Source: Diploptera punctata
Taxonomy: Eukaryota; Arthropoda; Insecta; Blattodea; Blaberidae
Length of the DNA: 64,000 nt
Direction of reading: 5' to 3'
NCBI GenBank assembly: GCA_030220185.1
Contig: JASPKZ010004202.1
Coordinates: 1,616,001-1,680,000 of the forward strand
The position numbers were made by a program, and so were the translations under genes. This document shows, piece by piece, positions 5,643-53,490 of this stretch. Positions within the stretch are counted from its first letter, which is position 1, and each line of letters starts with the position of its first letter. Below the pieces are notes generated by a model that saw only the letters and a program-made list of their open reading frames with translations, ran no database searches and was not told the origin of the DNA.

Positions 5643-5688
5643 AGCAGACCCAGGGTTTCTTCACGTAATTCGTGACATTGTCAATGCT
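5643..5688 (-). ncRNA. U3-A8 hammerhead motif, family F left arm
   Basis: Minus strand: AGCA, TTGACAA (plus 5678-5684), T, stem II TCACG/CGTGA, GAAA, stem III ACC-CTG-GGT, cleavage C, TGCT. Stem I AGCA/TGCT is fully paired. Core position 3 is T and position 8 is A, against C and G in the standard core. Confidence 0.65.
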
Positions 5689-5722
5689 GCGTCATGTTCA
5701 CAACATGTTGTGAACATGACGC

Positions 5723-5768
5723 AGCATTGACAATGTCACGAATTACGTGAAGAAACCCTGGGTCTGCT
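5723..5768 (+). ncRNA. U3-A8 hammerhead motif, family F right arm
   Basis: AGCA 5723-5726, TTGACAA 5727-5733, stem II TCACG 5736-5740 with CGTGA 5746-5750, GAAA 5752-5755, stem III ACC/GGT with loop CTG, cleavage predicted after C5764, TGCT 5765-5768. All three stems pair, and the core differs from consensus only at 3 and 8. Confidence 0.65.
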
Positions 5769-6198
5769 ATAAATTATGAAGTATGAGGTGAGTGAAATGA
5801 TAAAAAATAAACAATATTAAAGAACCTCATAGTGTTATTTCCTATCTACATAACTTAATTAGTTGGTACTGTTTAATATATTCCAAAATTGGCGTAGTCT
5901 TCAATTCTTTTAAGATATCGGTGTTCCTTTTCCGATCCCATCTGGTGTAACCCGCTGTTCTGCGCATGAATCTCATTTCACAAGCCGTTATTCTGCTTTC
6001 ATGTTGTTTATTAAAATATATACTATGCAATAATTGTGATTATGTGAATCGCAGTTTAGTTAAAGTTGAGATTTGGTGTCGTCTAAAATGTAAGTGCAAA
6101 ATTTAGGCTATATGTTCTATAGATCACTTTTTTATTATTGTTCATTCATTGATCATCTGGTAATAAATAAATAATTTTCCTTTCCTTTGTCTTTGCAG

Positions 6199-9100
6199 AC
6201 ATCCAGCAGAGACAAGAAACGTTAATTAGTTTAGAAGAAGAAATAGAAAAATTAAAAGATGTATCCTTGGAACTGGAAAACCAGAAACTTTCATTGGAAA
6301 TGAAGATAGTAGATCTTGAAGAACAAATTGACATAGTAAATAAAGAAAAGAAAGAACTTCAAGAAGAATTAGAAGCAAAATCTATTTCATATAACACTGT
6401 CGAAAAACATGTGTATGAAGAAAAGCAACATCTTGCGGATAATAACAGTTCTGGACAAAGCATAGAAGTTATAGGAATAGAAGAACAAAGGCAGGAATCA
6501 GAATTTAATGTTGGCAGTCAACCAATGAACAAATCAGATCTCGAGGCCGAGCTTGAGAATTTAAGAAGAGTTATAGAAGAACAGAAAAGTATAATTATGG
6601 ACTTGAATTTCAAGATTGATTCCAGAGATGAAGAATTGGATTTACAAAGGGAAATGATAACAAACTTAGAACACTTAAGTGGTAATGACAAAGAAGATAA
6701 AATAATGGATATTGTTAAAGAATTGAATGAAATGGCAAGTGATCTCGAGGAATGGAAGAAAAGATGCACTGAAGTAGAAAATCGTTTACAAGTACTTGGT
6801 ACTGAAAAGGACGAATTGGAAGAACGTTTTGAGGAAGTTAAAGTTGAAAATTCAACTTTAAAACAACAATTAAATAATCAACATGAAGTAGCTACTGATT
6901 TAGCCAATAAATTAAAAGATCACAGCAATGCTATATCAAACAGAGATGAAAAAATCAATATTCTTCAAAGTATGATAGAACAAAATGGTCAGACTTTAGA
7001 AGCTAGAGAAATGACACTCAAAGATGTCCATGAAAAATTGAATAGTGTAGAGAAACAATATGAAAATAGGCTTTCTGAACTGAAATCAGTTCTTCACGAC
7101 AAAGAAAATGAAATCATGAAAATGGCTTCTTCCTTGGGAAAACAAGATGATTTGTTGAAAGATAGAGACGTGCAGATTCAAGAACTTAATGATAAATTGA
7201 ATAAAGAAAAACAGGAATTTGAATCCCTTCAACAACATATATCATACGTTGAAAATTCATCTCATCAGTTACAAATTCAATTGAATGAAATATCTACTGC
7301 CGCTGTTGAAAAAGATTTGTTGAGCTCACAAATGGCTCAGGAATGTCAACACCATAAAGAACAAATAGAAAAATTGTCTTTTGAACTTTCCAATAAAACT
7401 GAGTATGTAAATAAAATAGAAATGGAATTGAACGGTTTCAGAGTCCTTGAGACTCAGTTGAAGACAGCTGAAGATAATTTAAAATCCCAAGCAGAAGAAC
7501 TGGGTAAACTAAAACTAGAAATGCAATCAGCCAAATCTGAATTAGGAGAAAAGCAAGAGAAATTAAATGAAGCGGAAAAGAAGGTAATAGAATTGACAGA
7601 AAAGAATAAAAAATACATTGCAAATCTAAAAGCAAGAACTGTGACTGTTAAAGGACATGAGCAAAAAATACAACAGTATGAAGTGCTTATCAAAGAGAAA
7701 GAAAGCATGATATTACAATTGACAGCCACAAATGAGAAAATCCTAGATGAACTAACAGATAAAAATAAATCAGATTCTCATGAAGTGCAGAACTATATGG
7801 AAAAAATGGATAACTTAACTAAAGAATTACATGAGGAACGTGCTAGAACTGAATTGATTGGGGAAGAACTGACAAGAGCTACTGAAAAAATTGTTTCTCT
7901 TGAGATGGATTTGAAAAATTCTGAATCAAAATTGCAACAAAGATATATGCTTGAAGAAAATCATGCTATGTTGTCAAATAAAATTATGGATCTTGAAAAT
8001 GAGATTTCTCAAATTCAATTATCTTTGAAAGTCAAAGATGAAGAGATTAATCAATTGAAGGAAGGTAATTTTAGACTGAATAAACAGGAAGAGGAACTGA
8101 AAATAAATTTGGAAGAAAATAGATTACAGCACAATGAGTTAATTACTTCGTTAGAAGGAAAAGTAATGATTTTGGAAAATGAATTGACAGCAAGAAAATG
8201 TGAATTAAATGAAGTTAGAAATATCATCAGTGATAAGGAACTTAGAATTGACCAATTAACAGAACAAATGACAGAAATCTCAGAGAGAGGAAGTCAGTCT
8301 TTATCAGCAAATGAAGCCAAGTTACAGGAAAGAGAGGCCGTTGTCGAGTTTTTGGAGCAAGAAGTAACCAAATCGAAAGAAACAATACAACACTTACAAG
8401 AACGGTTAGCTTTTGTTGAAGAAAGACGGCTCTCTCTTGAAAATAAGGCAGAGGTATTAAATTTAAGAGCACAGGAATCTGATAGAATGAAAGAAGAAGC
8501 ATTTGAAACAGAAGGTATGATAGAAAAGAGATTTGAAATGCTTCTTGCAAGTGAAGAAAGCCTCAAAAAGAAGGTTGGATTATTAATTTCTGAAAATGAA
8601 GAACTAACACAAAAAGTTACGGAATTAACAACACAAAATATTGAAGGAAAAAGAGAAATTCAAAATACGGAGTGTAATGCTAAAGATCTTCTAAAAGAAG
8701 TTGAAAGATTAACACCATTTGAATTTCTATTTAGCCAAGCTTCAGAGAATGTTGAAACTTTGGAGCTTGAATTGAAACGAATCAATTCAGAATTTGAATA
8801 TCGCATGAATGAAAAGATTCATAAATTAAAACAACAATCTGAAAGTCTTGAATCAGATTTGAGAAATGTAAATATGGAATTAGAAAAAGTTGAACTAGAA
8901 AAGAGAACATTACTAGAAAGATATGAAAAATTGAATGATGAGAAATTAAATTTGGAAGATGAAATTGAAAAACAAAATGAAACAATTGCATCATATAAAT
9001 TGGCAAATGAAAGTCTTAAAGAAAAGTTTAATACAGACGAAATAAAACAAGAGTTGGAGGAAAGAATACAGTATTTGGATACTGAACTCGCACATAAATT

Positions 9101-12100
9101 ATCGTTGTTGGAGGAAAAAGATGTTTTGGTAAATGAACTGGCTGAGAAAAATAAAATATTAGAAAGTGAAATATTACAGAAAGCTTTGACTATTGATTCT
9201 CTATCGTCATCTAAAGAGGAACTAAATAAAAAACTGGATGAATTGGAGAATGTTATTAAAGATATGGAAGCTTCTAATCAAGCCCACATATTAGAAAAGG
9301 ATAAAGTTCTGACAGAAATGAAAGATAAAATTAATTATTTTGAATCCAAACTAATGGAAACATCTGAAGCGATGTCAGTAGATGTCAGTAGTAGTGAATA
9401 TGAAGAACGCATATCTCATTTAAATAAAGAATTGGAGAATTTAAAATTAACTGTATCTCAAAAGAATGATGAAATTAAAAATTATCAAAAGCATATGTTG
9501 CAATTACAGTTTGAAAGTACTCCTTTCAGTTCTGAAGTAAATACTGCTGTAGAAGATCAAGTATTGAAGTTAGAACAAACAAAAATTGAGTTAGAGGAAA
9601 TGTTAAAAGCAAAGGAAACAGAAATAATTAAAATGAACTCGGTTCTTAATTTATCAAATATAGAGCTTGAAGATCTCAGATCTCAACACGAGAACAGTAA
9701 ATTGAAAATAGAAGCTCTAAACAAAGAACTTGATTGCTTCCGAGAATACGCGAAATCTAAGGAAATACACAGAGACATTAACATTCAAGATTTAGAAAAG
9801 ATTGCAGAATTAGATTCCATCCCTGAAGAACATGCATCACTGAGAAATTTACAAGAAAATCAGGTGTCCTTGGAGCAGCAAGAAGAACTGAATAAAAAAT
9901 TATTAGTGAAGCAAGTGGAAGAAGAAGTTTCACATATCATTGACGTAGCTGAAAAACAAGTTCATAGACTGTTTCCATCATCAATAGATTTACAATTGCA
10001 AGTTGAGAGGCGTAAGAAATCCATATCATTCCAAGAAGCTGAACGTGAACGACATCGGATTGAACATTCTGAAGTTGAAACACATCTTGAAAACAAAATT
10101 AAGGAATTAGATGAAGAATTAAAACTTGTAAAGATGGAACGAGATGAAGCTTTGTTAAGACTAAGTCAACTGACAATACAGCCAGTTGAAAGTATGCCAA
10201 GTGATGTGTCCGATAACATTATACTAGTCTTGGGAACTGAAACTCAGATGGATATTAAAAATGAAGATAATATTGACAATCAAGGGCAGGTATCAGTTCC
10301 ATTGCAACAAATGCCTCCTGCAACTACTTCTGAAACCATCGTTACATCTGGATTGCAAAATTGGGAATTACATGAAGAAGAAGGTTGGTGGGGTTCAGAT
10401 GAGGCAAAGTTAGAAGAAGAACACATTCAAAAACAGCAGAATACTCTTTCGTTTTCTGAACCAGTTGACGTCGTCCTAAACAAACAAATAGTTGAATTAG
10501 AGGATCACATAAAAGACCTGGAAGCTGAGAAGCAGAAACTTTCTGAAGATCTCCATAATTCACAAGTTCGAAGTGGTAAAATGTTGAAAAAACTGAAAGA
10601 ACTGAAATTAAAAAATGATAATCTTTTGAAAGAAAATGCGGAATTGGTAAAGAAAAAGAGTGAGAAGGATTTCAGTGACCTTGATCAAGCTATTGAAGAG
10701 GAACTTAAAATTCAGATTGATGCTCTAGAAAAAGAAGTAAATGAAATAACAAATGAAAGAGATTCTATGATTATAGAAAAAGATGGCCTCATTAAACGAA
10801 TAGATGTACTGACAAGTGCAAATGAGAAACTCGTGGAATCAAAAGAGAAACAGGATTATGATTTAGAATTATGGAAACAAAAAAATAAAGATCTAAGTAA
10901 TCAAATTCAATCTTTAGAATGGAAAATAGGAGAGCTAGAAGCAACCAGTTCAGTAAATTTTGGCATACACGATGAGAAAATGGAAGAGAACGCATTCTTT
11001 TCGTGGGATAAGCAAGGTTTGAGCTCAAATGCAGAAAATTTGTTTGTTAATGTGAACACTGAGACACTTCAAGGACAAACAGTTTTTCCTTCAGGTGAAG
11101 ATGTTAGTATCCTTTTGGAGAAAGAAAAAAGTTTAAGACAGTCAGCAGAAAATCACATTCTAGATTTGCAGCAAAGATTGATTGATGTGAACATGGAAAT
11201 AGAACAGTTGGGAAGTGAGAATATTGCTCTCAAAACCCACTTACAACAACAAGAAAACACAAATTATTTGCAGAGTGCATACAACGCTGTTAACGAGGAG
11301 TATCACCGTGTTGCTACTGAAAATATTGCTTTGAAGAACCAACTGGAACAGTTGAGTCAGCAAGTAGTTAATAATGAGTTGGAAAGCACATATGATGCAT
11401 TAAACAAAGAATATTCTCGCATTTCAAGTGAAAACGTTGAGTTAAAATATCAGATAGAGAATTTAAATATACAGCTGGCTAACAGTGATTTAGAAAGTGC
11501 ATACAGTGCTTTGAAAGATAAATGTAATCAACTTTCAACCGAAAATACTGATTTGAAAAGACAAATAGATGAATTAAATCAAGTCAACTTTGACTTGGAT
11601 AATTCTTATAGGTCTCTCAGTGACAGATTTAATCTTATTTCAGATGAAAATACTAATTTAAAGAACCAGTTGGAACAATTGAATCAACAGGAAACAATCA
11701 GTGATTTGCAAACTGCATATGATTGTCTGAGTGAGAAATATGATTTCCTTTGCAAAGAAATGGAAGAATTCAAAATTTCAGCTGAAAGTAAGTACGAGAT
11801 GCTAAAAGATGAAAGTAATAAAAAACTAGATGAATTAAATAATGAATATGTGAAACTAGAAGAGCTATGTAAGAATCTTCAAGAAGAAAGGAATATACTT
11901 TCAACAGAAATAGATGGATTTAATATTTTAAATACACAATATTTAGCTTTGCAAACAGATTTTGACAATTTGAAAGCACATACTCTGGTTCAAGAAAAGA
12001 ATTTGACTTTTGCAGATGAAGAGAAATTAAGATTGGAACAAGAACTGTATCATTTGAAATCTATAACTGAGAGAAATTCTTCAGACGAAACAGCTGAAAT

Positions 12101-13079
12101 GCTGTCTGAACAACACGTGAAAATTGTACAAATGGAAAAAGAATTACGAGTCAGAATTGAAGAAATTGAAAAGCTGCGCCAGTTAATCGAGGAACAAAAA
12201 CTTGAACATGCTAGAGTTGAACAAGAATGGAACAGTAAAATGGAACGATTACGAAAAGAATTGGAATTGAGTGGGGAAAGCCTACTTCAACAGCAGAATC
12301 GTTACATAATGCTTGAGAAGGAACATGAAGAATTAAAGGATCACATAAATAAAGTGATAGAAAATAAAATTCATGAAGCTATAAGTATTAAAGAACAAGA
12401 AATTAATATTATGAAAGCAGACCTTGAAGAAAAAGAGTCATATTTTGAATCTCAAAAAGAAATAATTATTCAAGAGGAAATGAAACAAAAAACAGAAGAT
12501 ATTGAAAATTTACGACATAAATTAGCTGATTCTGTAGATATTTTAAATATTAGAGAGAATGACATTAAAAGTTTAACATCAAAGCTCTCTGAAAAAGAAT
12601 TAGAGCTTCATGAAATATTGAGTGTAAAGAATTCTGATATTCAGAATTTAAAAATCCAAATGGAAGATAATGAAAAGAGACTAAATCAAATTTTAGGTCA
12701 GAAAGATCAAGATATTGAAAATTTAAATATTCAGTTGTCAGAAAAAGATTTAGAAATAAATGAACTTAAGCAATCTCTCAATGAAGAGAAAAGACAATTT
12801 ACAGATTTAAAAAATCTTGTTGAGAGTCATGAACAAGAGTTACAACAATTCAGAGATGAGTCAGGTGCTGTGAGAAGTGAAAACATTCCAATGTTACCAA
12901 CATTAAATGTTCAGCACCATGATGTTTCTACCTCAGTCTTGGAAAAGAGAATATCTTCTCATTCTTTGCAAGATGAAGAAGAGAAGCCTTCAGATCCACA
13001 GCAGGAGCTAGATCTTGCATTATATATGCTTCACCAAAGAGATGTACGCTGCGATGAACTTACATTGGAGTTAATGCAG
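6199..13079 (+). CDS. lva: lava lamp-like golgin, giant coiled-coil exon
   Basis: One exon of 6.9 kb, open throughout, between TTTGCAG at 6198 and the donor CAG/GTAAGA at 13080. It starts mid-codon (AC of GAC) and reads DIQQRQETLISLEEEIEKLK..., then about 2290 residues rich in E, K, L, N and Q with heptad-like spacing, i.e. nearly continuous coiled coil and no globular domain. Five imperfect repeats of about 38-40 residues (pattern L..AY..L...Y...S.EN..LK.QLE.LN) lie at about 11265-11770. The end, ALYMLHQRDVRCDELTLELMQ, resembles the conserved C-terminal block of insect lava lamp, a Golgi-associated golgin linking membranes with spectrin and dynein for cellularisation and secretion. Name inferred from that block and size (about 2,450 residues or more); another giant golgin is the alternative. 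Confidence 0.65.
11265..11775 (+). repeat. Five tandem 38-40-residue coiled-coil repeats in lava lamp
   Basis: Successive units begin LQSAYNAVNEEY, LESTYDALNKEY, LESAYSALKDKC, LDNSYRSLSDRF and LQTAYDCLSEKY, most with EN..LK.Q following. DNA similarity between units is low, so the duplication is old or the pattern is maintained at protein level. Confidence 0.6.
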
Positions 13080-13141
13080 GTAAGAAATTATCATTTTTTT
13101 TAAATTATGTAGTATATGTAGGAAATAAAATGAGGTTTCTT

Positions 13142-14815: not shown

Positions 14816-14817
14816 CC

Positions 14818-16139: not shown

Positions 16140-16400
16140 TAAATCATATTTGAAGAGAAAAATTATACGCTCAGACCGGGACTTGAACCCGGGACCCTTG
16201 GTTTTCTAGTCCAAGTGCTCTACCATTTGACCTACCTGAGCAAGACCGATCTAAACGCAAATTTTTCTCTATATACGTTGTAATTCCCGCCCACCAAATG
16301 CTTTGAAGCCTTTGCTTCTATCTTTGCAAATGGCGGCTCCTATATTAAGAAGACATATTTGGGAATTATACATTACATTATAAATGCCAGTACGTACTGG
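16140..16400. repeat. tRNA-like element, partial, with module T7
   Basis: Starts ATATTTGAAGAGAAAAATTA, contains the module at 16169-16241 (minus), then the body with GCAAATGGCGGCTCC in inverse orientation relative to T5. Lies in the intron just after the 15828-16081 exon. Confidence 0.5.
16169..16241 (-). repeat. tRNA-like module T7
   Basis: Minus strand begins GCTCAGGTAGGTCAAATGG and ends CCCGGTCTGAGC. Acceptor positions 1-4 covary with T5 (GCTC/GAGC instead of GCCT/AGGC), so pairing is kept although the sequence changed. Confidence 0.5.
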
Positions 16401-16439
16401 CTTAGATAAATTGGAAATCACTCGTAGCATTACTTATGA

Positions 16440-16545
16440 CAATTTATAGATATACCGTTCAGCAGAATATGTTCTAAATCCTCCTCTCCAGCTTGGCACA
16501 GTGGGCACATAGGCGAGTCATTTAGATTTCATCTATATAAATATG
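16440..16545 (-). pseudogene. LINE zinc-knuckle fragment
   Basis: Minus strand reads NDSPMCPLCQAGEEDLEHIL, the CCHC tail of an I/Jockey-like LINE. Too short to classify further. Confidence 0.5.
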
Positions 16546-17023
16546 TATTAGTCATTCAAAGTTAAAAATGGGAAACACATTATGAGGTTCTTAATTAATA
16601 AATTAATGAGTCATTTTTACATCTTACGTCATATTTCATGTTTTATTAAACACGGTAACTATAGTTTTCAAATGATCTTGTCATTCATTTTCAACCGTCA
16701 TTATGACTACTGGATATTCGTTGGAATCTCCCTCTATAACATTGCCATCTGGTGTTGATTTGATGAACTTCGAGATATCGTTGCCATCTGGTATTGATTT
16801 GATGAACTTCGAGATGAGGATGAACGTGACCTCATCTCGAAGTTCATCAAATCAACACCAGATGGCAACGTTATAGAGGGAGATTCCAACGAATACCCGG
16901 TAGTCATAATGGCGGTTGAAAATGAATGACAAGATCATTTGAAAACTATAGTTACCGTTACTTTTATTATTGATTTAACATTCCTCAATGAAAGATAAAT
17001 TAAATTTGAAGAGAAAAATTTTC

Positions 17024-17096
17024 GCCTAGACCGGGACTCGAACCCGGGACCCTTGGCTTTCCGGGCCAAGTGCTCTACCAACTGAGCTACCGAGGC
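17024..17096 (-). repeat. tRNA-like module T8
   Basis: Well preserved minus-strand copy: GCCTCGGTAGCTCAG...CCCGGTCTAGGC with loop CCGGAAA. Confidence 0.6.
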
Positions 17097-17149
17097 GAGT
17101 TACGATCTAGACGCAAATTTTTCTGTTATATACGTTGTAATTCCCTATC

Positions 17150-17222
17150 GCCTCGGTAGCTCAGTTGGTAAAGCACTTGGCCCGGAAAGCCAAGGGTCCC
17201 GGGTTCGAGTTCCGGTCTAGGC
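17150..17222 (+). repeat. tRNA-like module T9
   Basis: Forward copy that starts exactly at the head-to-head junction with the inverted unit. D arm reads TAAAGC instead of TAGAGC. Confidence 0.6.
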
Positions 17223-17454
17223 AAAAATTTTTCTCTTCAAATTTAATTTATCTTTCATTGAGGAATGTTAAATCAATAATAAAAATATAATTAGAAGCCT
17301 TACTAGCTTTATAAAGTAGTGTTAAATTCCCAATAAATGTCTTCTTAACTAAGAAGCCGCCATTTGCAAAGATAGAAGCAATGGTTTCAAAAGCATTTGG
17401 CGATAGGGAATTACAACGTATATAACAGAAAAATTTGCATCTAGATCGTAACTC

Positions 17455-17526
17455 GCCTCAGTAGCTCAGTTGGTAGAGCACTTGGCCCGGAAAGCCAAGG
17501 GTCCCGGGTTCGAGCCTGGTCTAGGC
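17455..17526 (+). repeat. tRNA-like module T10
   Basis: Forward copy 305 bp after T9, ending the element; the T arm has lost bases (GAGCCTGGTC). Confidence 0.55.
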
Positions 17527-17810
17527 GAAAAAAAATTTTTCTCTTCAAATTTAATATAGTTCCCGTGTTTAATAAAACATGAAATATGAGGTAAGATGTA
17601 AAAATGACTCATTAATTTATTATGTATTAGTCACCATGTGACCAATTGTTGCTCGTGATAAGTGAGTATATTTGTGAAATGTAATAATGTTAGTGATCCA
17701 TATAAAATTCCTCACCTGTAGCTTCATTTTACACCAAAATAAAATAGTGTACTTCTCCTTTACCCCATCCTTCTCATCCTATTTTTCATCCTTTAAGTAA
17801 CAAACTGCCA

Positions 17811-21187: not shown

Positions 21188-21230
21188 GCAAATCCAGATT
21201 TCGTCACTGTATTTGGGACATTCTCAATGC
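21188..21230 (-). ncRNA. U3-A8 hammerhead motif, family D left arm
   Basis: Minus strand: GCA, TTGAGAA (plus 21221-21227), T, stem II GTCCC/GTGAC (one mismatch), GAAA, stem III ATC-TG-GAT, cleavage T, TGC. Stem I GCA/TGC. Confidence 0.6.
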
Positions 21231-21297: not shown

Positions 21298-21342
21298 AGA
21301 ATTGAGAATGTCACAAATACAGTGACGAAATCTGGATTTGCA
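21298..21342 (+). ncRNA. U3-A8 hammerhead motif, family D right arm
   Basis: TTGAGAA 21302-21308, T, stem II GTCAC 21310-21314 with GTGAC 21322-21326, GAAA 21327-21330, stem III ATC/GAT, cleavage after T21338. Stem I strand is AGAA here instead of AGCA. Confidence 0.6.
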
Positions 21343-23480: not shown

Positions 23481-23542
23481 GCTTCTGATTATGAAATTAT
23501 TTACCCCTTGCTTTTATGCACTATATCAATGGAACAGACGTT

Positions 23543-24412
23543 TGAAGTTGTGTTTATTTTTGCCCCTCGTTGTGGAGACATTTAAAGTTGGGTTTCTCGG
23601 TGAGATATCCGAAGTTGAAGATTTGTGATATAATTTAAACCACTTTAAATCTGCCACGGCACTAATAACTCTCTTCAGGGGAATGAGGAAATGTTTCTTA
23701 CACAAATAACAACACTTTATTAACAGTTGAACGATAAGTTAGTTTATTTAAAACTCTCACTTTGGTCAAGATGAATCTTGTAATTTAAAAGTTCCAAAAG
23801 ATTCCGGCTTCGGTTGATATTTTTCACTTCTAGAAGATTACCATTTTATGTATTTAATGGATGACGAATGCTAACGGTCAATCCAGTCATTATTATTCAT
23901 TATTTTCACTTAGAAACTGTTTTTCACCAAGATGGATGACTATTATATCACTATATAATCTTTCATACTTTTAACACTATTTCTTTCAACCAACATCAAT
24001 AAAATAAACAATTATTTCCTTATTCTTTAAGGAGCAGTCGCTGAACATGACCGACCATCTTCAAGTATTGTAGCCATCTTTTTATTATGTAATAACCTCT
24101 AGGTTCTGATTGGTCCAACAGAAAAGGAAGGAGTATTTTCAAGCTAACTTCTATCCAATTCCACCAATCCCATTTATTTCTTTATAAAAATTATCAATTT
24201 GAATATTTGAAGTATTTTACATACTGCATCAGTTATAAAAACATCTAACTGTATTAACAGTTTATATTGACCAGTTATTTTTTTTTTATATACTTATAAA
24301 AAATATGAATTCTATAAATCAATCTGATGTCCATTCTTCATATAAATAAATATAATTATAAACAAAACAAAAACCCTTATTATTATTATATGGGGATAAA
24401 TATCCGGTTTTA
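23543..24412 (-). repeat. 3' LTR
   Basis: Starts (on +) TGAAGTTGTGTTTATTTT and ends ATATCCGGTTTTA. Adjacent on the inner side is AATTGCCCC, i.e. AGGGGCAATT on the element strand, a candidate polypurine tract. Termini are not the canonical TG...CA. Confidence 0.85.
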
Positions 24413-24656: not shown

Positions 24657-27600
24657 CTAATTAATAGGAGTCTGAAATGGTTTCAACAGTTCTTTGGAAT
24701 ATTTTCCAATTTCTTTTCTAGTGTCTATTTCTCTTAGCTCATATGTGGTATCATTAAAATTTTTAAATATTTCATAGGGACCTTTATACAATAGGTTCAT
24801 CCTATGATATTGTTTCTTTAAAGCATTGGATAATGAAATATCCCTTATGAGAACTTTGTCTCCAACTTTGGGATTCCACTTCCTTTTATGTCTTTTAACC
24901 TTATTGTTGCGCTTTTCTGCGCGACATTCTAACCTTTCAATAACTCTTTTACATATTTCCTCGGATGTCTCCGGGATTTGACTTTTATCAATGATAGGTA
25001 ATGGTAAATTAGCAATTAACCTGTCAGGTTGTTTACCTGTCATTAGGAATATGGGTGCTTCCCCAGTATTGACATTAATTGAATGATTCATAACATTCTC
25101 TATGACGCTGATATGTTTAAACCAGTCAGAATGTTTATGATGGGTCAAAACTCTTAAACTTGTAGTAATTTCCCTATTAACTCTCTCACAGGGATTACTT
25201 TTTGGGTGATATTTACTACAATGGTACAATTTAATTCCTATCGCAGTAAGTTTATCTTTAAACTTAGGACTTGAGAACACTGAAGCATTATCACTAAGTA
25301 GTGCATCAATAGGTCCATAATTAGGTAAATAATCTCTCACAATTTTACCTAGGCAAGCTCTGCTATTTACACTTCTTAATGGATATATTTTTACAAATTT
25401 TGAGAATACATCAGATAATACAAGAATATGCTTGTAACCAAATTGAGTAGTAGGCATTTCTCCATGAGTATCCATTACTACTAAGCTATTTACTTTGTTC
25501 CTTAATATGTTTTGTGGAACTATATCATATTTTACGTTCATACATTTGGCTTTTTGACAAGTTATGCATGAAGAAGTAAACTTTCTCAACTTTTTATCTA
25601 AATGTTTAACATAAAAAAATTCACTTATGTTGAGAGCTAATTTTTCACAACCTGCATGATTTAAGCCGACATGAAAAGTTCTAAATAGTGGAACTTCCAT
25701 ATTATTAGGAATTATAACTTTCCATTTTTTCACATTTCTCCCATGTAATTTGTAAAGAATGTCATCCTTTATACCGATTTTCTTATTACAATCAATTCCA
25801 TTTTTGTCATCATTATTTATATCTCTCGCACTATACTTCAATCGTTGTAACTCTATATCAGATTTTTGATGCTCAACAATGTTTTTCATCAACAATGAAA
25901 ATTCTTTGTCTCTATACAGTTTTACATTAAACATTACTACTTCGTGTTTAGGAGTATGTACAGTTTCAGGTATTTTCCCAACACTTTTCAATCTAGACAG
26001 GAGGTCAGCAAACACATTCTGTTCTCCTTCTATGTGTTTTATTTCAATATCATAGGAAATTATTTCCATGATCATCCTACTCAGTTTATTATTGGATAAT
26101 CTACATTTACTTATAAAACTTAGTGAAATGTGGTCACTATGAACAATAACTTTGTTTTTATAAACATAAATTCTAAATTTATTTAGAGCATAAAATATTG
26201 CTGTAAGCTCCAACTCTGAAACAGTGTAATTTCCTTCAATGATGGTAGTCGAGCGCGAAGCTGTCGACACAACATACTGTTGCCCATCATCGTCAAATTG
26301 AGTTAAAACAGCACCGAGGCCAGTTTTACTCGCGTCTGTGTATAAATGGAATTCTCTGTCCATTTTTGGTCTCTGTAGTGAAATACTATTTGCAAATAAC
26401 TTCTTAACATATTCAAAAGTAGATTGATGGTCCTCTGTCCATCTCCATTTACTATCTTTCTTCAGCAGCCCTCTCAGCTTACTAACCGCTGAGGCATAGT
26501 TGATGACAAACTTCGAATAGTAATTTAAGATTCCTAAAAATCTACGAAGTTGTTTTATGTTCTTTGGTGAAGGAATTTCTAAGATTCCTTGAACCTTGTC
26601 TGGGTCAGGAGTAATCCCTTGATTAGAGATCCTGTATCCTAGGAATTGAACCTCCGACCTAACAAACACAGACTTTTCTAGGCTGACTGTCATTCCACTA
26701 TTCTTTAATTGAGACAACATTAAATCAATATGAGATATATGATTCTCAAAAACATTATCAATAATAATTGCATCGTCAACATATATAGTACAATGTCTTT
26801 TAACATCATCAGATAGTACAATATCTAGGGCTCTAAGAAGCGCACTTCCGCTATTTCTTAGACCGAATGCACACCTGGTAAATTCATATACTTTTCCATT
26901 ATGTATAAAAGCTGTATAGGGCCGAACTTTGGGGTCTAGTTCTATCTGCCAAAATGAAGAAGTTAAATCAATAGAACTAATAAATCTACCTGTTTTCATA
27001 TTTGCTATAGATGCTTCAATTGTCTCGGGCCTATAATTATCCCGGACAGTGAAAGAATTAGTCCTACGACTGTCTAAACACAGGCGAATTTTGCCATTAG
27101 GTTTTAACACCCAGCAAATATGGTTGGCGTAAGGAGAATCAGATTTCTGTATTATTCCTTGCATTAACATGTCATCTATCATTTGATCTGCCTGCTCTCT
27201 GATAGCAATAGGGATGGGTCTACTTTTAATATTTATAGGTGGATGTTCCATCACTTTAAAGGAATATTTAAAACAGTTGCACAATCCCGGCTTCGAAGAA
27301 AAAGAACTCTTATTTTTCATTAAGATGTCATACAACATGCCTTTCTGTTCATTGTTTATGCCATGAGTGTCTTTAACTTTTTCCTTTATCATTTCACAGA
27401 TGTCTTTTTCAAGTTCGTCACTCACACAATATAATAGAGGAATTTCATCATACTCAGTATTGCAAGAGACACATTCTAAATCACAACATTTACATGCGAC
27501 ATAATCGTCAGCACAACCATTTTCATTATTAAGGCTTTCTTCGCCCTCGACACTTTTGTCGGAAGTACAATTAACTGCAATATTATCTTGCATTTGGCAT

Positions 27601-28292
27601 CCACGGCCATTCACCAATTCCCTCTCCTCATGAACAACAATATTCTCTATAAAAATGTGTTCTTCAGCAATGTCACTCTCCTTCTTACTTAGATTCTTGT
27701 TCTCCTCATATTCATTATCAAATGGGATGACGACTCTCACATTATCTTCATTATACAAGGAAATATTCTTACACTCAAAATTTATTATGGCATTATATTG
27801 CTCCAACAGGTCGCAGCCTATTAACATATCACAAGACAAGTATGGAGAAATTAAACATATCGCACTGAAGTAATATCCTCCGATATGTAAATCTAGAAGG
27901 CACTGTAGCTTAATTGGCAGTTTCTTCTTGCCTATCGCAAGAGTACAATACACTCCACATATTCTTACAGTCATTATCTTATTCCCTTTGTTGACTAAGA
28001 AATTATAAAATTTCTGATCTATTGTTGTGTTTGAGCAGCCACTATCCGCTATGCAAGTAACATCATTGTTAAAAATATTTACTTTAATTTTGGGTGGTCT
28101 TCCTATGACATTTAATTCTTTATTAGTAACAGGCATAGCATCCTGATTCTTAGAAACATTCAAATGATTATTCAATATTATGCTATCTCGCTGTCTTGAG
28201 GTACATAACTTACTATCTCCTCTCATATTTGCTGGTACAATTTCTAAATTTTGAAACCTATCAAAGCATCTATTTTGGACCCCTAAGTTCAT
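24657..28292 (-). CDS. pol: Pol polyprotein (protease, RT, RNase H, integrase)
   Basis: 1,211 codons from the first ATG at 28292, but the frame is open upstream to the frameshift site at 28337-28343, so Pol is probably made by -1 frameshifting and not from this ATG. Visible: aspartic protease ADSGCSNTT (about residues 82-90), reverse transcriptase with YVDDAII (about 505), RNase H LYTDASKTGLGAVL (about 650), integrase zinc motif HAGCEK...CITCQKAK (about 880-915), and D, D, E motifs in MDTHGE, LSDNASVF and NPCERVNRE. The conserved LPFGL-type RT motif appears as CAFGLRNSGSALL, somewhat unusual. No internal stop; enzymatically it looks intact. Confidence 0.92.
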   Translation of the reverse strand: MNLGVQNRCFDRFQNLEIVPANMRGDSKLCTSRQRDSIILNNHLNVSKNQDAMPVTNKELNVIGRPPKIKVNIFNNDVTCIADSGCSNTTIDQKFYNFLVNKGNKIMTVRICGVYCTLAIGKKKLPIKLQCLLDLHIGGYYFSAICLISPYLSCDMLIGCDLLEQYNAIINFECKNISLYNEDNVRVVIPFDNEYEENKNLSKKESDIAEEHIFIENIVVHEERELVNGRGCQMQDNIAVNCTSDKSVEGEESLNNENGCADDYVACKCCDLECVSCNTEYDEIPLLYCVSDELEKDICEMIKEKVKDTHGINNEQKGMLYDILMKNKSSFSSKPGLCNCFKYSFKVMEHPPINIKSRPIPIAIREQADQMIDDMLMQGIIQKSDSPYANHICWVLKPNGKIRLCLDSRRTNSFTVRDNYRPETIEASIANMKTGRFISSIDLTSSFWQIELDPKVRPYTAFIHNGKVYEFTRCAFGLRNSGSALLRALDIVLSDDVKRHCTIYVDDAIIIDNVFENHISHIDLMLSQLKNSGMTVSLEKSVFVRSEVQFLGYRISNQGITPDPDKVQGILEIPSPKNIKQLRRFLGILNYYSKFVINYASAVSKLRGLLKKDSKWRWTEDHQSTFEYVKKLFANSISLQRPKMDREFHLYTDASKTGLGAVLTQFDDDGQQYVVSTASRSTTIIEGNYTVSELELTAIFYALNKFRIYVYKNKVIVHSDHISLSFISKCRLSNNKLSRMIMEIISYDIEIKHIEGEQNVFADLLSRLKSVGKIPETVHTPKHEVVMFNVKLYRDKEFSLLMKNIVEHQKSDIELQRLKYSARDINNDDKNGIDCNKKIGIKDDILYKLHGRNVKKWKVIIPNNMEVPLFRTFHVGLNHAGCEKLALNISEFFYVKHLDKKLRKFTSSCITCQKAKCMNVKYDIVPQNILRNKVNSLVVMDTHGEMPTTQFGYKHILVLSDVFSKFVKIYPLRSVNSRACLGKIVRDYLPNYGPIDALLSDNASVFSSPKFKDKLTAIGIKLYHCSKYHPKSNPCERVNREITTSLRVLTHHKHSDWFKHISVIENVMNHSINVNTGEAPIFLMTGKQPDRLIANLPLPIIDKSQIPETSEEICKRVIERLECRAEKRNNKVKRHKRKWNPKVGDKVLIRDISLSNALKKQYHRMNLLYKGPYEIFKNFNDTTYELREIDTRKEIGKYSKELLKPFQTPIN

Positions 28293-28301
28293 AACGATTG
28301 A

Positions 28302-28343
28302 GGTACATTGCGGAGTCTTTAATGTACCTTCTATGCGTTTAAA
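28302..28343 (-). promoter_or_regulatory. -1 ribosomal frameshift signal (gag-pol)
   Basis: On the element strand: heptamer T TTA AAC (plus 28337-28343) in the gag frame, 8-nt spacer with the gag stop TAG, then GGTACATT, an 11-nt loop and AATGTACC, a perfect 8-bp stem (plus 28302-28309 with 28321-28328). After slipping, TTT AAA CGC ATA reads straight into Pol. Confidence 0.85.
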
Positions 28344-30186: not shown

Positions 30187-30325
30187 TAATTGTTATTATC
30201 ACTAATTCACTTTTCACATATAAATTTTAACTGTACTCACTTTTGAAGATTTTTATTACTTTCCTCATTCTCGTGGTCCTTGGTTCGATTCAGGTTTACA
30301 GGTCCCTGGTTCGATTCCCATTCGA

Positions 30326-30345
30326 GCCCTCGTTGATGCGCCATT
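30326..30345 (-). promoter_or_regulatory. Candidate primer binding site
   Basis: Directly inside the 5' LTR the element strand reads TGGCGCATCAACGAGG, complementary to a tRNA 3' end in CCA. Upstream on the + strand the sequence has two GGTTCGATTC T-arm-like motifs. Which tRNA it matches is not determined. Confidence 0.55.
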
Positions 30346-32289: not shown

Positions 32290-32560
32290 TGTTTTGTTTC
32301 TTGACTCACCTCATACTTCTTAACTCCCTCGCATATCTAGATTTCGTCACTGTATTTGTGACATTCTCAATGCTGTTCACGTTCACAACTGACGTCCAAT
32401 GGTCTCCTCTCCTGCAGACTGAGGTCACAAATACAGTGACGAAATCTAGATATCCTTGGGAGTTAAGAAGTATGAGGTGAGTCAAGAAACAACTAAACAA
32501 AATTAAAATAAACCTCATAGTGTTGTTTCCTACCTACATAACTTAAGAAAATTTTTTGTC
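32290..32560. mobile_element. PLE palindrome (family D) with U3-A8 hammerhead
   Basis: Left arm 32295-32415 complete; the right arm starts within stem II at 32424 (GAGGTCACAAATACAGTGACG). Terminus AAACCTCATAGTGTTGTTTCC. Confidence 0.7.
32331..32373 (-). ncRNA. U3-A8 hammerhead motif, best preserved
   Basis: Minus strand: GCA, TTGAGAA (plus 32364-32370), T, stem II GTCAC-AAATACA-GTGAC perfect, GAAA (plus 32342-32345), stem III ATCTAGAT, cleavage A, TGC. Every element is present, with only C3 to T and G8 to A differing from consensus. Confidence 0.7.
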
Positions 32561-42124: not shown

Positions 42125-42500
42125 TTCAATTAGTAATTAATAAAAATTAATGATAGAGTCGTATCTCACCTCATACTTAGTTTTTTTCAAGCATGGAAAC
42201 TACAGTTTTCAAGAGGAAATCCTTCCCATCTTCAGCCATCATTACGATTGTCAATTTTTTGTCTATATCTTTATCTTCAAAGTTGCCATTTAGTGTTGAT
42301 TTGATGAACTTTGAGATCAAGTCTTGCTTGCTGGAAATTTCAAAATTCATGGATTTAATTAGTTCTTTTGAATAATGTATACCTTTTCCCAAACTGTCAA
42401 ATCCAAGAGTTTTGCCAAATATTTTGCAGCTCATAGTCATAAAATTGAAAAAAGAAGCTAAACTTTTAAAACATTTGGCAAGTGCCATCGTCCTCAACTA
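42125..42500 (-). mobile_element. PLE 3' end (family M) with hammerhead
   Basis: Minus strand 42177-42497 encodes a degraded PLE C-terminus (MNFEISSKQDLISKFIKST, MAEDGKDFLLKTVVSMLEKN). Frame open across the ribozyme. Terminus TAAGTATGAGGTGAGATACG. Confidence 0.65.
42193..42239 (-). ncRNA. Hammerhead motif, family M
   Basis: Minus strand: ATGG, CTGAAGA (plus 42229-42235), T, stem II GGAA-GGAT-TTCC region, TGAAA, stem III AAC-TGTA-GTT, cleavage T, CCAT. Stem I ATGG/CCAT pairs over 4 bp. Here stem III has a 4-nt loop. Confidence 0.65.
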
Positions 42501-43569: not shown

Positions 43570-43615
43570 AGCAGACCCAGGGTTTCTTCACGTAATTCGT
43601 GACATTGTCAATGCT
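43570..43615 (-). ncRNA. U3-A8 hammerhead motif, family F left arm
   Basis: Same layout as 5643-5688: AGCA/TGCT stem I, TTGACAA, TCACG/CGTGA, GAAA, ACC-CTG-GGT, C. Confidence 0.65.
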
Positions 43616-43693: not shown

Positions 43694-43739
43694 AGCATTG
43701 ACAATGTCACGAATTACGTGAAGAAACCCTGGGTCTGCT
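43694..43739 (+). ncRNA. U3-A8 hammerhead motif, family F right arm
   Basis: TTGACAA 43698-43704, GAAA 43723-43726, cleavage after C43735, stem I 43694-43697 with 43736-43739. Confidence 0.65.
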
Positions 43740-46615: not shown

Positions 46616-46643
46616 TGTTTAATAAAACATACTTTTTTTACAG

Positions 46644-47205: not shown

Positions 47206-47253
47206 CCATGATATCGCGATTTCAAACATAGTCATGTTCATCTTCAGCCATAA
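47206..47253 (-). ncRNA. Hammerhead motif, family B with intact coding context
   Basis: TATGG, CTGAAGA (plus 47241-47247), AACAT-GACT-ATGTT, TGAAA, ATCGCGAT (plus 47213-47220), A, TCATG. Identical to 1834-1881. The frame ends AEDEHDYV with TGA shared with the GAAA box. Confidence 0.75.
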
Positions 47254-47713
47254 CTCCGACTGACGAAATTCTTCGGCCGTCAACTATTCTATTGTCACCA
47301 TCTTCAGTGCTGCCATCTATGGTTGAATTTATGAACTTCGAAATCAATGTAATTTCGTTAGGGATATCAAAATTCATTGATCTATTTTTGTTTTTCTGAA
47401 TGTATATTTTTTCCCAAACTGTCAATTCCAAAGGTTTCTCTACTTGTTTTAAAAGTTTAGCTTCTCTTCCAATTTTATGATGTTCTAATAAACTATGTGC
47501 AGCAATTGCAGATTTTTCAATTTCACAATTTTTAATATTTCTGAAATGTTCTTTTGTCCGAATTTCCAAATTCCTTTTTGTTTTTCCTATATAAACTTTA
47601 TTGCAATCTTCACAATTTATTTGATAAATTCCAGATTTCTTACTGTCTGGAACATTGACTTTTTTATTGGTACTTAGAAGATTACCCAGACTAAATTTAT
47701 TTATTGGTGCCAA
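47222..47713 (-). pseudogene. PLE GIY-YIG endonuclease and C-terminus
   Basis: 163 codons: SKKSGIYQINCEDCNKVYIG carries GIY, the CxxC zinc motif typical of PLE endonucleases and YIG; KTKRNLEIRTKEHFRNI has the catalytic Arg and following E/H; then EKSAIAAHSLLEHH and TVWEKIYIQKNKNRSMNF. Upstream the frame is broken near 47720-47800. This copy anchors all the C-terminal fragments in the window to PLEs. Confidence 0.85.
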
Positions 47714-47933
47714 AGAAATGTTCTATTTGTCAAAAATTTTTTGAAATTTTCTATGCATTTCAGGATGGTAAGTAATTTTCTTGCATTTTTTCTTTTCTTT
47801 GCAATTTTGTAGAGTATGATATTCATTAAGTTTAAACAATATGTTCTCCGATGAATTTTAATGATTATACCTCATAATTATATTATTTTTGGTCTGGACA
47901 TCTTACCTCAATATTAATGTTGATTTGTTCTTG

Positions 47934-47969: not shown

Positions 47970-47988
47970 CTTTCCCAGACTGGGAAAG

Positions 47989-48715: not shown

Positions 48716-48769
48716 CAGTATTGTTGTTTATTTTTTATTATTTCACTCACCTCATACTTCATAAATCAT

Positions 48770-48815
48770 AGCAGACCCTGGGTTTCTTCACGTAATTTGT
48801 GACATTGTCAATGCT
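48770..48815 (-). ncRNA. U3-A8 hammerhead motif, family F
   Basis: AGCA (inverse at plus 48812-48815), TTGACAA (plus 48805-48811), TCAC(A)/(T)GTGA-type stem II, GAAA, ACC-CAG-GGT, C, TGCT. Confidence 0.6.
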
Positions 48816-49369
48816 GCGTCACGTTCACAACTGACGTCCAACGGCCTTCTATCCTGCAGACTGACCTCCGCGCCATCTGGTGGCCGACCGAAGAATTTCC
48901 AAATCAGTCCTCTTTCTTTATAACCGGGTATTTCAAAGTTCATAGTTGTATTTTCATTCTTGCATATGTAAATTTTTTCCCAAATTGTGAGTTCCTTCGG
49001 TTTTTCCAATTGTTTAAGTAATTTTGTTTTGTTTTCAATTGTATGTTTTTCTGACCAGGCATGTGCAGCTATTGCAGATTTTTCGGTTTCTCCATTTTTA
49101 ACATTTCTGAGGTGTTCTTTTAATCTTGTATTTAGATTCCTTTTTGTTTTTCCTTTGTATATCTTTTCACAATCTTAACAATTAATTTGATAAACTCCCG
49201 ATTTTTTACAGTCTTCAATTTTTTCATTTTTGTTGGTTTTTATTAAATTACCTAAGCTGTAATCATTTTTCGGTGCTAATTTAATGTTGAATTTGTTGAA
49301 AATTTTTTGAAACTTGTCAAATACGAAAGGATGGTAATGGAAACCGAAAAATCTGCAATAGCTGCACAT
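48788..49369 (-). pseudogene. PLE GIY-YIG endonuclease with nonsense codon
   Basis: Minus strand: KIEDCKKSGVYQINC, stop TAA, then DCEKIYKGKTKRNLNTRLKE, SAIAAHAWSEKHTIEN and WEKIYICKNENTTMNF. G-V-Y and Y-K-G replace GIY and YIG, and the TAA lies between them, so inactive. Confidence 0.75.
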
Positions 49370-49614
49370 GCCTGGTCAGAAAAACATACAATTGAAAACA
49401 AAACAAAATTACTTAAACAATTGGAAAAACCGAAGGAACTCACAATTTGGGAAAAAATTTACATATGCAAGAATGAAAATACAACTATGAACTTTGAAAT
49501 ACCCGGTTATAAAGAAAGAGGACTGATTTGGAAATTCTTCGGTCGGCCACCAGATGGCGCGGAGGTCAGTCTGCAGGATAGAAGGCCGTTGGACGTCAGT
49601 TGTGAACGTGACGC

Positions 49615-49660
49615 AGCATTGACAATGTCACAAATTACGTGAAGAAACCCAGGGTCTGCT
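49615..49660 (+). ncRNA. U3-A8 hammerhead motif, family F in coding context
   Basis: AGCA 49615-49618, TTGACAA 49619-49625, TCAC/GTGA, GAAA 49644-49647, ACC/GGT, C49656, TGCT 49657-49660. The PLE frame runs ...RDAALTMSQIT and TGA... through the ribozyme, tying U3-A8 hammerheads to PLE 3' ends. Confidence 0.7.
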
Positions 49661-49764
49661 ATGATTTATGAAGTATGAGGTGAGTGAAATAATAAAAAAT
49701 AAACAATATTAAAGAACCTCATAGTGTTATTTCCTATCTACATAACTTAATTACAGTATTGTGT

Positions 49765-50205: not shown

Positions 50206-50208
50206 AAA

Positions 50209-50638
50209 CAATTAATTATCTTTGAAGAGAAAAATTTTCGCCTAAACTGGGACTCGAAAATTTTTCTCTTCAAATATAATTTATCCTTCGATGAGAAGTG
50301 TTAAACTAATAATAAAATCGTCAATAGAAGCCCTACTGGCTATAAAGTAGTGTTTAAAATTCCCAATAAATGTCTTCTTAACTAAAGAAGCCGCCATTTG
50401 CAAAGATAGAAGCTATGGTTTCAAGCATTTGGCGCAAGGGAATTACAACGTACATAAGAGAAAAATTTGCGTCTAGATCGCAACTCGCCTCGGTAGCTCA
50501 GTTGGTAGAGCACTTGGCCCGGAAAGCCAAGGGTCCCGGGTTCGAGTCCCGGTCTAGGCGAAAATTTTTCTCTTCAAATATAATTTATCCTTCGATGAGA
50601 AGTGTTAAATTAATAATAAAATCGTCAATTAATTATCT
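50209..50638 (+). mobile_element. tRNA-like mobile element with 13-bp TSD
   Basis: Flanked by CAATTAATTATCT at 50209-50221 and 50626-50638. The left end is a 35-bp inverted stub (GAGAAAAATTTTCGCCTAAACTGGGACTCG region) joined head to head to a forward unit: tail, body with GCCGCCATTTGCAAAGATAG, module T15, tail. The tail TTTATCCTTCGATGAGAAG appears before and after, so slightly more than one tandem unit is present. Confidence 0.8.
50487..50559 (+). repeat. tRNA-like module T15
   Basis: Best preserved forward module: GCCTCGGTAGCTCAG, CTTGGC-CCGGAAA-GCCAAG, CCGGG-TTCGAGT-CCCGG, TCTAGGC. Could bind TFIIIC through its A and B boxes. Confidence 0.65.
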
Positions 50639-52565: not shown

Positions 52566-52599
52566 GGTGTGCAACATAATTCAAACCAGTCTGGGAAAG

Positions 52600-52633
52600 C
52601 TGACGATAAAACAGAATTGTTTTGAAACATGTC
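52600..52633 (+). ncRNA. Hammerhead motif, family K
   Basis: CTGACGA 52600-52606, AAAACA/TGTTTT, GAAA 52624-52627, ACATGT, C52633. Confidence 0.6.
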
Positions 52634-52959
52634 CAAGAACAAATGAACATTAATATTGAGGTAAGATGATCAGAGTAAAAATAATATAAATAATGACATG
52701 TGTTTTGTTCTTAATGTGTTATAGGGTTTTTTCATGTCTAGAAAATTGTATTGCTCTTGTGGGAACGCTGTTGCTATGTGACAGAGAAGAAAATATATTT
52801 CCCTCCTGTCCTTGTAGCATAAGTTTAACATCAACTTAATTTTATGGCATAATTATCTTTACTGCTGCTACTAAAATCTAAATCCTGTTCATTCTAGTGT
52901 TGTTACAAGGAACAACATTAACTTTAAAATTCATCGGAGAACATTTTGTTTCGTAAATT

Positions 52960-53155
52960 AATGAGTAATTTTTTAACATCCTACCTCATATTTTTATGTT
53001 TCAAACATGGGAAGTAGTTTTCGAGAGCAGGGTCTCTCTCATTTTCAACCGACATTATGAAATGTTTGAAGAAACATAAAATATGAGGTAAGATGTTAAA
53101 AAATGACTCATTAATTTACGAGTTAAGAACCTCATAATGTTATTTCCCATATTTA
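52960..53155. mobile_element. PLE palindrome (family I), truncated
   Basis: Arms AATTTTTTAACATCCTACCT and its complement; right terminus AACCTCATAATGTTATTTCCC. Hammerhead lost. Confidence 0.6.
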
Positions 53156-53159
53156 ACTA

Positions 53160-53490
53160 TGAACATTTTGTTTAAACAACTCACCTCATACCATGATACC
53201 ACGGTTTCAAACACAGTCGTGTTCATCCTCAGCCATAACTCTGACTGACAAAATTCTTCGGCTTTCAACTATTCTATTGTCACCATCTTCAGTGCTGCAA
53301 TCTATGGTTGAATTTATGAACTTCGAAATTACTTTGAACTACTACACGTTGTGGACGTGACACAGCATTGAGAATGTCACAAAGGATGATGAAACCCTGG
53401 GTATGCTTGCTAGGAGTTATGAAGTATGAGGTGAGTGAAATAAAAAATAAACAATATTAAAAAAACCTCATAGTGTTATTTCCTATCTAC
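53160..53490. mobile_element. Chimeric palindrome: family B left arm, family F right arm
   Basis: Left arm (minus) has the family B terminus and decayed hammerhead (GGTTTCAAACACAGTCGTG), then GAAATTACTTTGAA joins a family F right arm with CAGCATTGAGAATGTC and the terminus CCTATCTACATAAC. Two different PLE families joined head to head. Confidence 0.6.
53365..53406 (+). ncRNA. U3-A8 hammerhead motif with broken stem II
   Basis: GCA, TTGAGAA 53368-53374, GAAA 53391-53394, ACC-CTG-GGT, cleavage A53403, TGC; stem II no longer pairs (GTCAC against GAT). Confidence 0.5.

What the first reader, a model, noticed from the sequence alone, without database searches (positions are those of the whole stretch)
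5643..53406. A second hammerhead class with U3-A8 in place of C3-G8
In families D and F the core reads TTGANAA instead of CTGANGA: C3 to T and G8 to A together, in copies at 5643, 5723, 21188, 21298, 32331, 43570, 43694, 48770, 49615 and 53365. C3 and G8 form a Watson-Crick pair in the active hammerhead fold, so this is a compensated pair change. Stem I (AGCA/TGCT or GCA/TGC), stem II, GAAA and a palindromic stem III remain, and the extra T is present too. I do not know of a natural hammerhead group fixed for U3-A8.
Basis: partly seen in the sequence, partly recalled or inferred. Interest (0 to 1): 0.88.

Follow-up and report, generated by a model that had tools for sequence, protein, structure and literature searches.

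The report
Cockroach retrotransposon hammerheads with swapped core
A cockroach genome holds thousands of copies of a small RNA motif shaped like the hammerhead self-cutting ribozyme in which one conserved core base pair has been exchanged for another that still fits, an exchange known from a few natural ribozymes but here shared by whole transposon families.

Summary
All ten copies have U3-A8 instead of C3-G8 in a hammerhead layout; two have a stem mismatch, one a shortened stem II. They come from six insertions; five copies lie on the minus strand. A further U3-A8 family ('G', 16652 and 16910) was not listed. The host is the cockroach Diploptera punctata. The motifs overlap the 3' ends of GIY-YIG endonuclease frames of Penelope-like elements. 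In 314 kb, with nt 3 and 8 left free, a structural scan gave 17 C-G, 8 U-A, 1 U-G and no other combination. The D/F pattern has 23,453 exact genome matches: C3-G8 3, U3-G8 69, C3-A8 327. Family G has 5,355. A C3-G8 control family is the mirror image in its first 100. A DNA tree separates D/F and G (AU p 0.0013); a protein tree agrees but does not reject one origin (p 0.108). In D/F both changes are silent in the overlapping frame; in G neither is. Natural U3-A8 covariation was published in 2011, and dimeric Penelope hammerheads are cited as published in 2017, so the kind is known. New here is fixation across high-copy families. Cleavage is untested.

The parts
5643..5688 (-). U3-A8 hammerhead, family D (TTGACAA), minus arm of palindrome 5592-5819
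5723..5768 (+). U3-A8 hammerhead, family D, plus arm of the same palindrome
16652..16698 (-). U3-A8 hammerhead, family G (TTGAAAA; stem II GAATGA/TCATTT; stem III AACTATAGTT); not listed in the finding
16910..16960 (+). U3-A8 hammerhead, family G, opposite arm of palindrome 16652-16958
21188..21230 (-). U3-A8 hammerhead, family F, stem II with one mismatch
21299..21341 (+). U3-A8 hammerhead, family F, stem I with one mismatch
32331..32373 (-). U3-A8 hammerhead, family F (TTGAGAA), all stems intact
43570..43615 (-). U3-A8 hammerhead, family D
43694..43739 (+). U3-A8 hammerhead, family D
48770..48815 (-). U3-A8 hammerhead, family D, overlapping the end of the frame at 48788-49174(-)
49615..49660 (+). 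U3-A8 hammerhead, family D, opposite arm of palindrome 48719-49711
53364..53407 (+). U3-A8 hammerhead, family D/F, shortened stem II
48788..49174 (-). GIY-YIG-like frame of the D lineage (ends ALTMSQIT*; the stop lies in stem II of the hammerhead). No Pfam hit on its own; recognised by tblastn with the 47222 frame (62%)
47222..47722 (-). GIY-YIG frame (PF01541, above cut-off) of family A, ending inside a C3-G8 hammerhead (MAEDEHDYV*)
47206..47253 (-). C3-G8 hammerhead of family A, for comparison
42193..42239 (-). C3-G8 hammerhead of family H, possible sister of family G (stem III AACTGTAGTT)
   Evidence: support 79/25, not starred
58174..58205 (+). decayed F copy (T3, A8 kept; A6 to G, G12 lost)
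59098..59129 (+). decayed F copy (T3, A8 kept; A6 to G, G12 to A)

Best explanation
These are minimal type I hammerhead-fold RNAs at the 3' ends of Penelope-like retroelements in Diploptera punctata. In two element lineages (D/F and G) the core pair C3-G8 has been replaced by the isosteric pair U3-A8 and then inherited through large amplifications. The palindromic stem III has no room for a hairpin loop, so I infer that the RNA acts as a dimer, two transcripts (or two units of one transcript) sharing stem III and cutting after H17. Cutting would process element RNA during retrotransposition. In D/F the two substitutions are silent in the overlapping endonuclease frame (CTG>TTG Leu; ANG>ANA with N = C, G or A), which would have given a protein-neutral route through a U-G or C-A intermediate. 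In G they cost two amino-acid changes. Shown: the letters, stems, covariation, reading frames and match counts; supported but not settled: two origins. Inferred: direction C-G to U-A, dimer action, cleavage, role in transposition.
For: nt3/nt8 left free: 17 C-G, 8 U-A, 1 U-G of 26 hits in 314 kb. Anchored on the downstream tail instead: 102 sites, 46 with intact core = 26 C-G, 17 U-A, 1 U-G, 1 G-G, 1 G-C (the last an alignment artefact). 21 unselected D/F copies with up to 4 mismatches allowed: T3 21 of 21, A8 21 of 21. Alignment of 26 copies that I chose: pair 3-8 C-G 13, U-A 12, U-G 1; stem II 98.1% paired with double changes at 3 of 4 pairs. Stem III varies within D/F as different palindromes. 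Genome: D/F 23,453 with C3-G8 3, U3-G8 69, C3-A8 327; G 5,355, first 100 listed all U-A; control family A 11,459, of the first 100 listed 97 C-G, 1 U-G, 2 C-A. Three D copies on other contigs are 96.8-98.9% identical over 437 nt to the window copy, and a subfamily at 80% (L045) has U3-A8 too. Two lineages: AU p 0.0013 with nt 3 and 8 masked. GIY-YIG domain: PF01541 for families A and G. Published: U3-A8 covariation in several natural hammerheads and in vitro activity; C3G/G8C double mutant partly rescues a Penelope-like hammerhead.
Against: No cleavage data. 13 of 27 D/F motifs (loci picked for diversity) have A at 11.1 opposite G10.1. The published Anolis Penelope-like hammerhead did not cut without its protein, and cutting was not needed for insertion in vitro. 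Rfam finds no hammerhead here, even at E up to 10. Within D/F the double C3-G8 class (3) is hardly more than the about 1 expected from the singles, so there is no sign of pair-wise reversion. The genome counts demand an intact rest of the pattern, which lowers the share of any single variant. Family K has the same reading frame as D/F but kept C3-G8. The protein tree does not reject one U3-A8 origin (p 0.108; a first version with frameshifted rows gave 0.221).
Confidence: 0.72

Rival explanations
1. The U3-A8 motifs are non-cutting relics: the pair was fixed once or twice by drift (easy in D/F, where both changes are silent) and multiplied as a passenger because transposition does not need ribozyme activity.
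For: In vitro, hammerhead mutants of the Anolis element still insert. 13 of 27 D/F motifs lack a standard 10.1-11.1 pair. 4 of 21 unselected D/F copies have lost G12.
Against: Stem III takes different palindromes within D/F while the rest of the core stays in most copies. Single variants U3-G8 and C3-A8 are rare (69 and 327 of 23,453), though only among otherwise intact motifs. Family G reads two amino acids differently from A and H yet is paired at 3-8.
Confidence: 0.25
2. The motif is kept as a folded landing site for the element's protein or as a recognition structure for reverse transcription, using the hammerhead shape without cutting.
For: The hammerhead lies at the element's 3' end shortly before a conserved TATGAGGTGAGT-like tail. 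The Anolis hammerhead RNA is cut only in the presence of the element's protein.
Against: A shape-only role does not explain why GAAA, A6, A9 and H17 are held as in active hammerheads across families.
Confidence: 0.15
3. The resemblance is a by-product of a conserved C-terminal peptide plus DNA palindromes of the insertions.
For: C3-G8 families A, B, C and H share an acidic peptide such as AED, TEE or ADD over the core, and four of the six insertions of the finding are inverted repeats.
Against: In D/F and K the core is read in another frame (nt 3 at codon position 1 instead of 2), so one peptide cannot explain the shared core letters. Stem II covaries across families. The hammerhead pairing is within one arm, not between arms.
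Confidence: 0.03

Closest known systems
Small dimeric hammerhead variants of Penelope-like elements (Lunse, Weinberg and Breaker 2017; Cervera and de la Pena 2014; neither is held, known here only from citing papers)
   Same: Minimal type I hammerheads in Penelope-like elements; reduced stem III; cleavage as dimers by the 2017 title.
   Different: I could not read whether either paper lists U3-A8 members. Here whole families share it and the motif overlaps the end of the endonuclease frame.
Natural hammerheads with U3-A8 (Perreault et al. 2011, PMC3088659; passages and part 2 of 7 of the main section read)
   Same: The same compensated pair; covariants had been proven active in vitro before.
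   Different: Described as several examples among rare core variants, not (in the parts read) as high-copy families of a retroelement.
Hammerhead of the Poseidon element PAc of Anolis carolinensis (Frangieh et al. 2024, PMC11167929, section 'Main text' read)
   Same: Penelope-like element; hammerhead overlaps coding sequence; the frame starts at stem II, so an A9-T-G10.1 start like the ATG in several families here is likely (inference); C3G and G8C abolish cutting and the double change partly restores it.
   Different: PAc has C3-G8. There the start codon is overlapped; here the end of the frame is.
Penelope elements of Adineta vaga with inverted pLTRs (PMC3846280, passages)
   Same: Head-to-head inverted copies with palindromes at the junction.
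   Different: The word hammerhead does not occur in that text.

Membership tests
Hammerhead ribozyme (type I) | Three helices around the core in the order I-core-II-GAAA-III-UH-I | tested here: met
Hammerhead ribozyme (type I) | C3 and G8 as letters | tested here: not met
   U3 and A8 in 21 of 21 unselected D/F copies and in the first 100 listed of 5,355 family G matches
Hammerhead ribozyme (type I) | A Watson-Crick pair between nt 3 and nt 8 | tested here: met
   C-G 13, U-A 12, U-G 1 of 26 chosen copies
Hammerhead ribozyme (type I) | U4 G5 A6, A9, G12 A13 A14, A15.1-U16.1, H17 | tested here: met
   Required by the scan; also present in most copies found by tail or by family, lost in some (for example G12 in 4 of 21)
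Hammerhead ribozyme (type I) | Self-cleavage after H17 | not testable with these tools
   no wet experiment
Penelope-like element | GIY-YIG endonuclease frame next to the motif | tested here: met
   PF01541 above cut-off for families A and G; D lineage below cut-off or no hit but 62% identical to A by tblastn; family G matches PDB intron-associated endonuclease 1, E 0.0014
Penelope-like element | Telomerase-like reverse transcriptase in the same frame | tested here: inconclusive
   the longest frames found upstream were short; the 172-aa frame in L017 matched no reverse transcriptase model
Penelope-like element | Inverted or tandem copies with repeated ends | tested here: met
   head-to-head palindromes with hammerheads pointing outward; repeated ends of a full element were not reconstructed

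The most novel reading that the evidence does not exclude
Two Penelope-like lineages of one cockroach independently swapped the hammerhead core pair C3-G8 for U3-A8 and then amplified to some 28,000 recognisable motif matches (palindrome arms counted singly). One swap could go by a protein-silent route through the overlapping endonuclease frame, the other cost two amino-acid changes. That is a natural double-mutant experiment on the ribozyme core at genome scale.
Probability: 0.55. Interest if true: 0.65.

Novelty: new variant of a known kind. Interest (0 to 1): 0.5.

Why it matters
The 3-8 pair is a contact inside the hammerhead core. Families that live with U3-A8, next to sister families with C3-G8 in the same genome, let one compare activity, pair tolerance and protein constraint in natural sequences. 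Searches built on CUGANGA would miss them, and Rfam missed both classes in this window, so counts of Penelope hammerheads may be too low.

Tried and rejected
Rfam at gathering level and at E up to 10 on the window: no hammerhead family; long palindromes give many microRNA matches below cut-off. RF00008 over the whole genome: 0 hits, but only 68 of 317,751 candidates were scored and no control rang, so it says nothing.

A third U3-A8 family at L008:2778 was considered and dropped: no GIY-YIG, no tail, 2-bp stem I. Hits at L018:5235, L003:8138, L016:4061 and window 20592 were judged chance for like reasons. L018 is one of the 8 U-A hits, so 7 are believed.

A first tree (50 rows) was flawed: one row had the wrong core picked (P), and two C3-A8 copies inside D/F were counted as outside the U-A group, which made its AU test meaningless. 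It was redone (38 rows) with P picked anew and 12 rows left out by my judgement after seeing the first tree: A_w1834, D_w53364, D_L017a, E_L017 (U-G), N_L001 (U-G), the C3-A8 rows L041 and L043, both L031 rows, L034 and both L035 rows. A protein tree with frameshifted rows (17 rows, p 0.221) was redone without them (12 rows, p 0.108); H was lost from it.

Enrichment of the double C3-G8 class in D/F was looked for and not found (3 seen, about 1 expected from the singles). In one search two of five measures (pairs with a change on both sides, 288 of 500 shuffles as high; further pair types, 111 of 500) do not exceed the shuffles; the other three do (0 of 500).

Print: searches in the open library listed no paper on a retroelement family fixed for U3-A8, judged by titles, abstract starts and the passages read. 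The two most relevant papers (2014, 2017) are not held, so absence is not established.
Full report
WHAT WAS CHECKED. The ten coordinates were read directly. Each holds, on one strand or the other, a stem I (GCA/TGC, with a mismatch at 21298), TTGANAA, one extra T, stem II, GAAA, a palindromic or near-palindromic stem III that begins with A and ends with T, and H17. Five lie on the minus strand. Four palindromes and two single copies make six insertions. Searches also found family G, with the same pair and different stems.

CHANCE. The 7-mer alone is common. A descriptor with all stems and with nt 3 and 8 left open found 26 motifs in 314 kb (window plus 25 pieces of 10 kb, 20 along the same contig and 5 on others): 17 C-G, 8 U-A, 1 U-G, none of the other 13 combinations. 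Simulated DNA (3 Mb) gave 7, and six decoy cores gave 0-2. With laxer stems the same sample gave 39 hits (25 C-G, 11 U-A, one each of U-G, G-G, A-A), more of them chance (64 in the 3 Mb). One of the eight strict U-A hits is probably chance. An independent anchor, the TATGAGGTGAGT-like tail shortly downstream (eleven spellings), gave 102 sites: 46 with an intact core (26 C-G, 17 U-A, 1 U-G, 1 G-G, 1 G-C artefact), 17 with one core letter lost, 39 without a motif over the score limit. Arms of one palindrome count twice in these numbers.

COVARIATION. On 26 copies that I chose from both classes the pair 3-8 is C-G 13, U-A 12, U-G 1. Stem II is 98.1% paired, with changes on both sides at three of four pairs. 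Shuffles reach the covariation score and the paired share in 0 of 500, but two of the five measures are not above the shuffles (288 and 111 of 500); sliding the partners lowers all measures. In the 30 distinct motifs with a tail, which include loci picked for deviant nt 3 or 8, the pair is C-G 14, U-A 14, U-G 1, C-A 1. Stem pairing is partly built in by the scan; pair 3-8 was not required. Within D/F, stem III runs through several palindromes (ACCCWGGGT, ATCTAGAT, ACTCGAGT, ACCTAGGT and others).

GENOME COUNTS. Exact D/F pattern with nt 3, 7 and 8 free: 23,453, reversed-pattern control 0. Of these C3-G8 3, U3-G8 69, C3-A8 327; the remaining 23,054 are U3-A8 plus 12 other combinations, and of the 100 listed I count 97 U-A, 2 C-A, 1 U-U by eye. 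Family G: 5,355, the 100 listed all U-A. Family A, a C3-G8 control: 11,459; of the 100 listed 97 C-G, 1 U-G, 2 C-A. These are exact matches to the rest of the pattern, so old decayed copies are left out. Without that demand, 21 D/F copies in 314 kb (up to 4 mismatches) have T3 and A8 in 21 of 21.

CONTEXT. The motifs overlap the 3' ends of GIY-YIG frames, often in head-to-head inverted copies as described for Penelope elements. In families A, B, C and H nt 3 is the second base of a codon; in D/F and in K (C3-G8) it is the first. So C3>U and G8>A are silent in D/F (CTG>TTG; ACG>ACA, AGG>AGA or AAG>AAA). In family G, with a frame open over the last 170 residues in three arms (L046 minus, L047 both), the same exchange reads Ala>Val and Asp>Asn relative to H and A. 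The extra nucleotide after A9 is present in 25 of 26 strict hits. In most families it is T and makes an ATG, as the text on the Anolis element implies, but B has G, I has A, and the window's E copy reads ATA, so the nucleotide is kept even where there is no start codon.

LINEAGES. With nt 3 and 8 masked, a DNA tree of 38 copies needs two changes and rejects one U-A clade (lnL 19.3 lower, AU p 0.0013). G falls on the side of the C3-G8 families A, B, H, M and O (79/89, weak), and with H at 79/25 (not starred). By protein, the family G copy L047 is 80% identical to A over 144 aa and 63-64% to D over 101 aa. The protein tree also needs two changes but does not reject one (p 0.108). The alignments are short (224 DNA and 148 protein columns). 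Three D copies on other contigs are 96.8-98.9% identical to the window copy, and a subfamily reaches 80%, so the swapped pair passed through old and recent amplification.

HOST. The giant frame at 6171-13103 is 100% identical, over 98% of the 400 residues searched, to a Diploptera punctata protein on a contig of 4,099,939 bases, the length of this contig.

WHAT IS KNOWN. Perreault et al. 2011 report U3-A8 covariation in several natural hammerheads and cite in vitro activity. Frangieh et al. 2024 show that a Penelope-like hammerhead loses cutting with C3G or G8C, partly regains it with both, needs the protein in vitro and is not needed for insertion. A review describes minimal hammerheads in Penelope-like elements that may self-cleave as dimers, role unknown. 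That U3-A8 marks whole high-copy families was not met in the searches listed under Tried and rejected.

MECHANISM. Dimer formation through stem III, cutting after H17, and processing of element RNA are inferences from anatomy and from the cited work. The 2'-OH at position 8, which binds the metal ion thought to supply the general acid (passage), is still there with A8. I put activity of intact U3-A8 copies at about 0.65.

Noticed in passing
for example window 5782(+), 14290(+), 32315(-), 47193(-), 56785(+); 102 sites of eleven spellings in 314 kb: A conserved TATGAG|GTGAGT-like tail, shaped like a 5' splice site, follows the hammerheads of most families shortly after stem I.
   Followed up: partly
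tail sites L009:9427(+), L009:8747(-), L020:4474(+), window 220(-); similar sequence near L010:6033 and 6130: A family with GAT in place of GAA in the core and G at position 17, shared by several copies; probably non-cutting, or my reading of its core is wrong.
   Followed up: no
whole genome, D/F family: C3-A8 single variants (327) are almost five times as common as U3-G8 (69), although the wobble pair should be the milder change.
   Followed up: no
window 59771-59807(+); L009:6196(-); L011:7915(+); L019:3725(-): A hammerhead-like family (stem II GGTAC/GTACC, extra A) with a different downstream sequence; a weak GIY-YIG match lies near only one of the four.
   Followed up: no
window 547-1694, 4967-5039, 16167-17528, 50486-50561, 62532-62605: Twelve tRNA-like genes, eleven read as tRNA-Ser, several in inverted pairs, as in tRNA-derived SINEs.
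   Followed up: no
window 24657-30192(-): Ty3/Gypsy-like polyprotein frames (name by eye, no call) between repeats at 23541-23840 and 30344-30643 that are 100% identical: a young LTR element by its look.
   Followed up: no
window 6171-13103(+): Single 2310-codon frame of a golgin-like host protein; its first 400 residues match a Diploptera punctata record at 100%.
   Followed up: partly
L019 (two copies), window 58174 and 59098: 4 of 21 unselected D/F copies have lost G12, and the two window copies of these also A6; all are F-like.
   Followed up: partly
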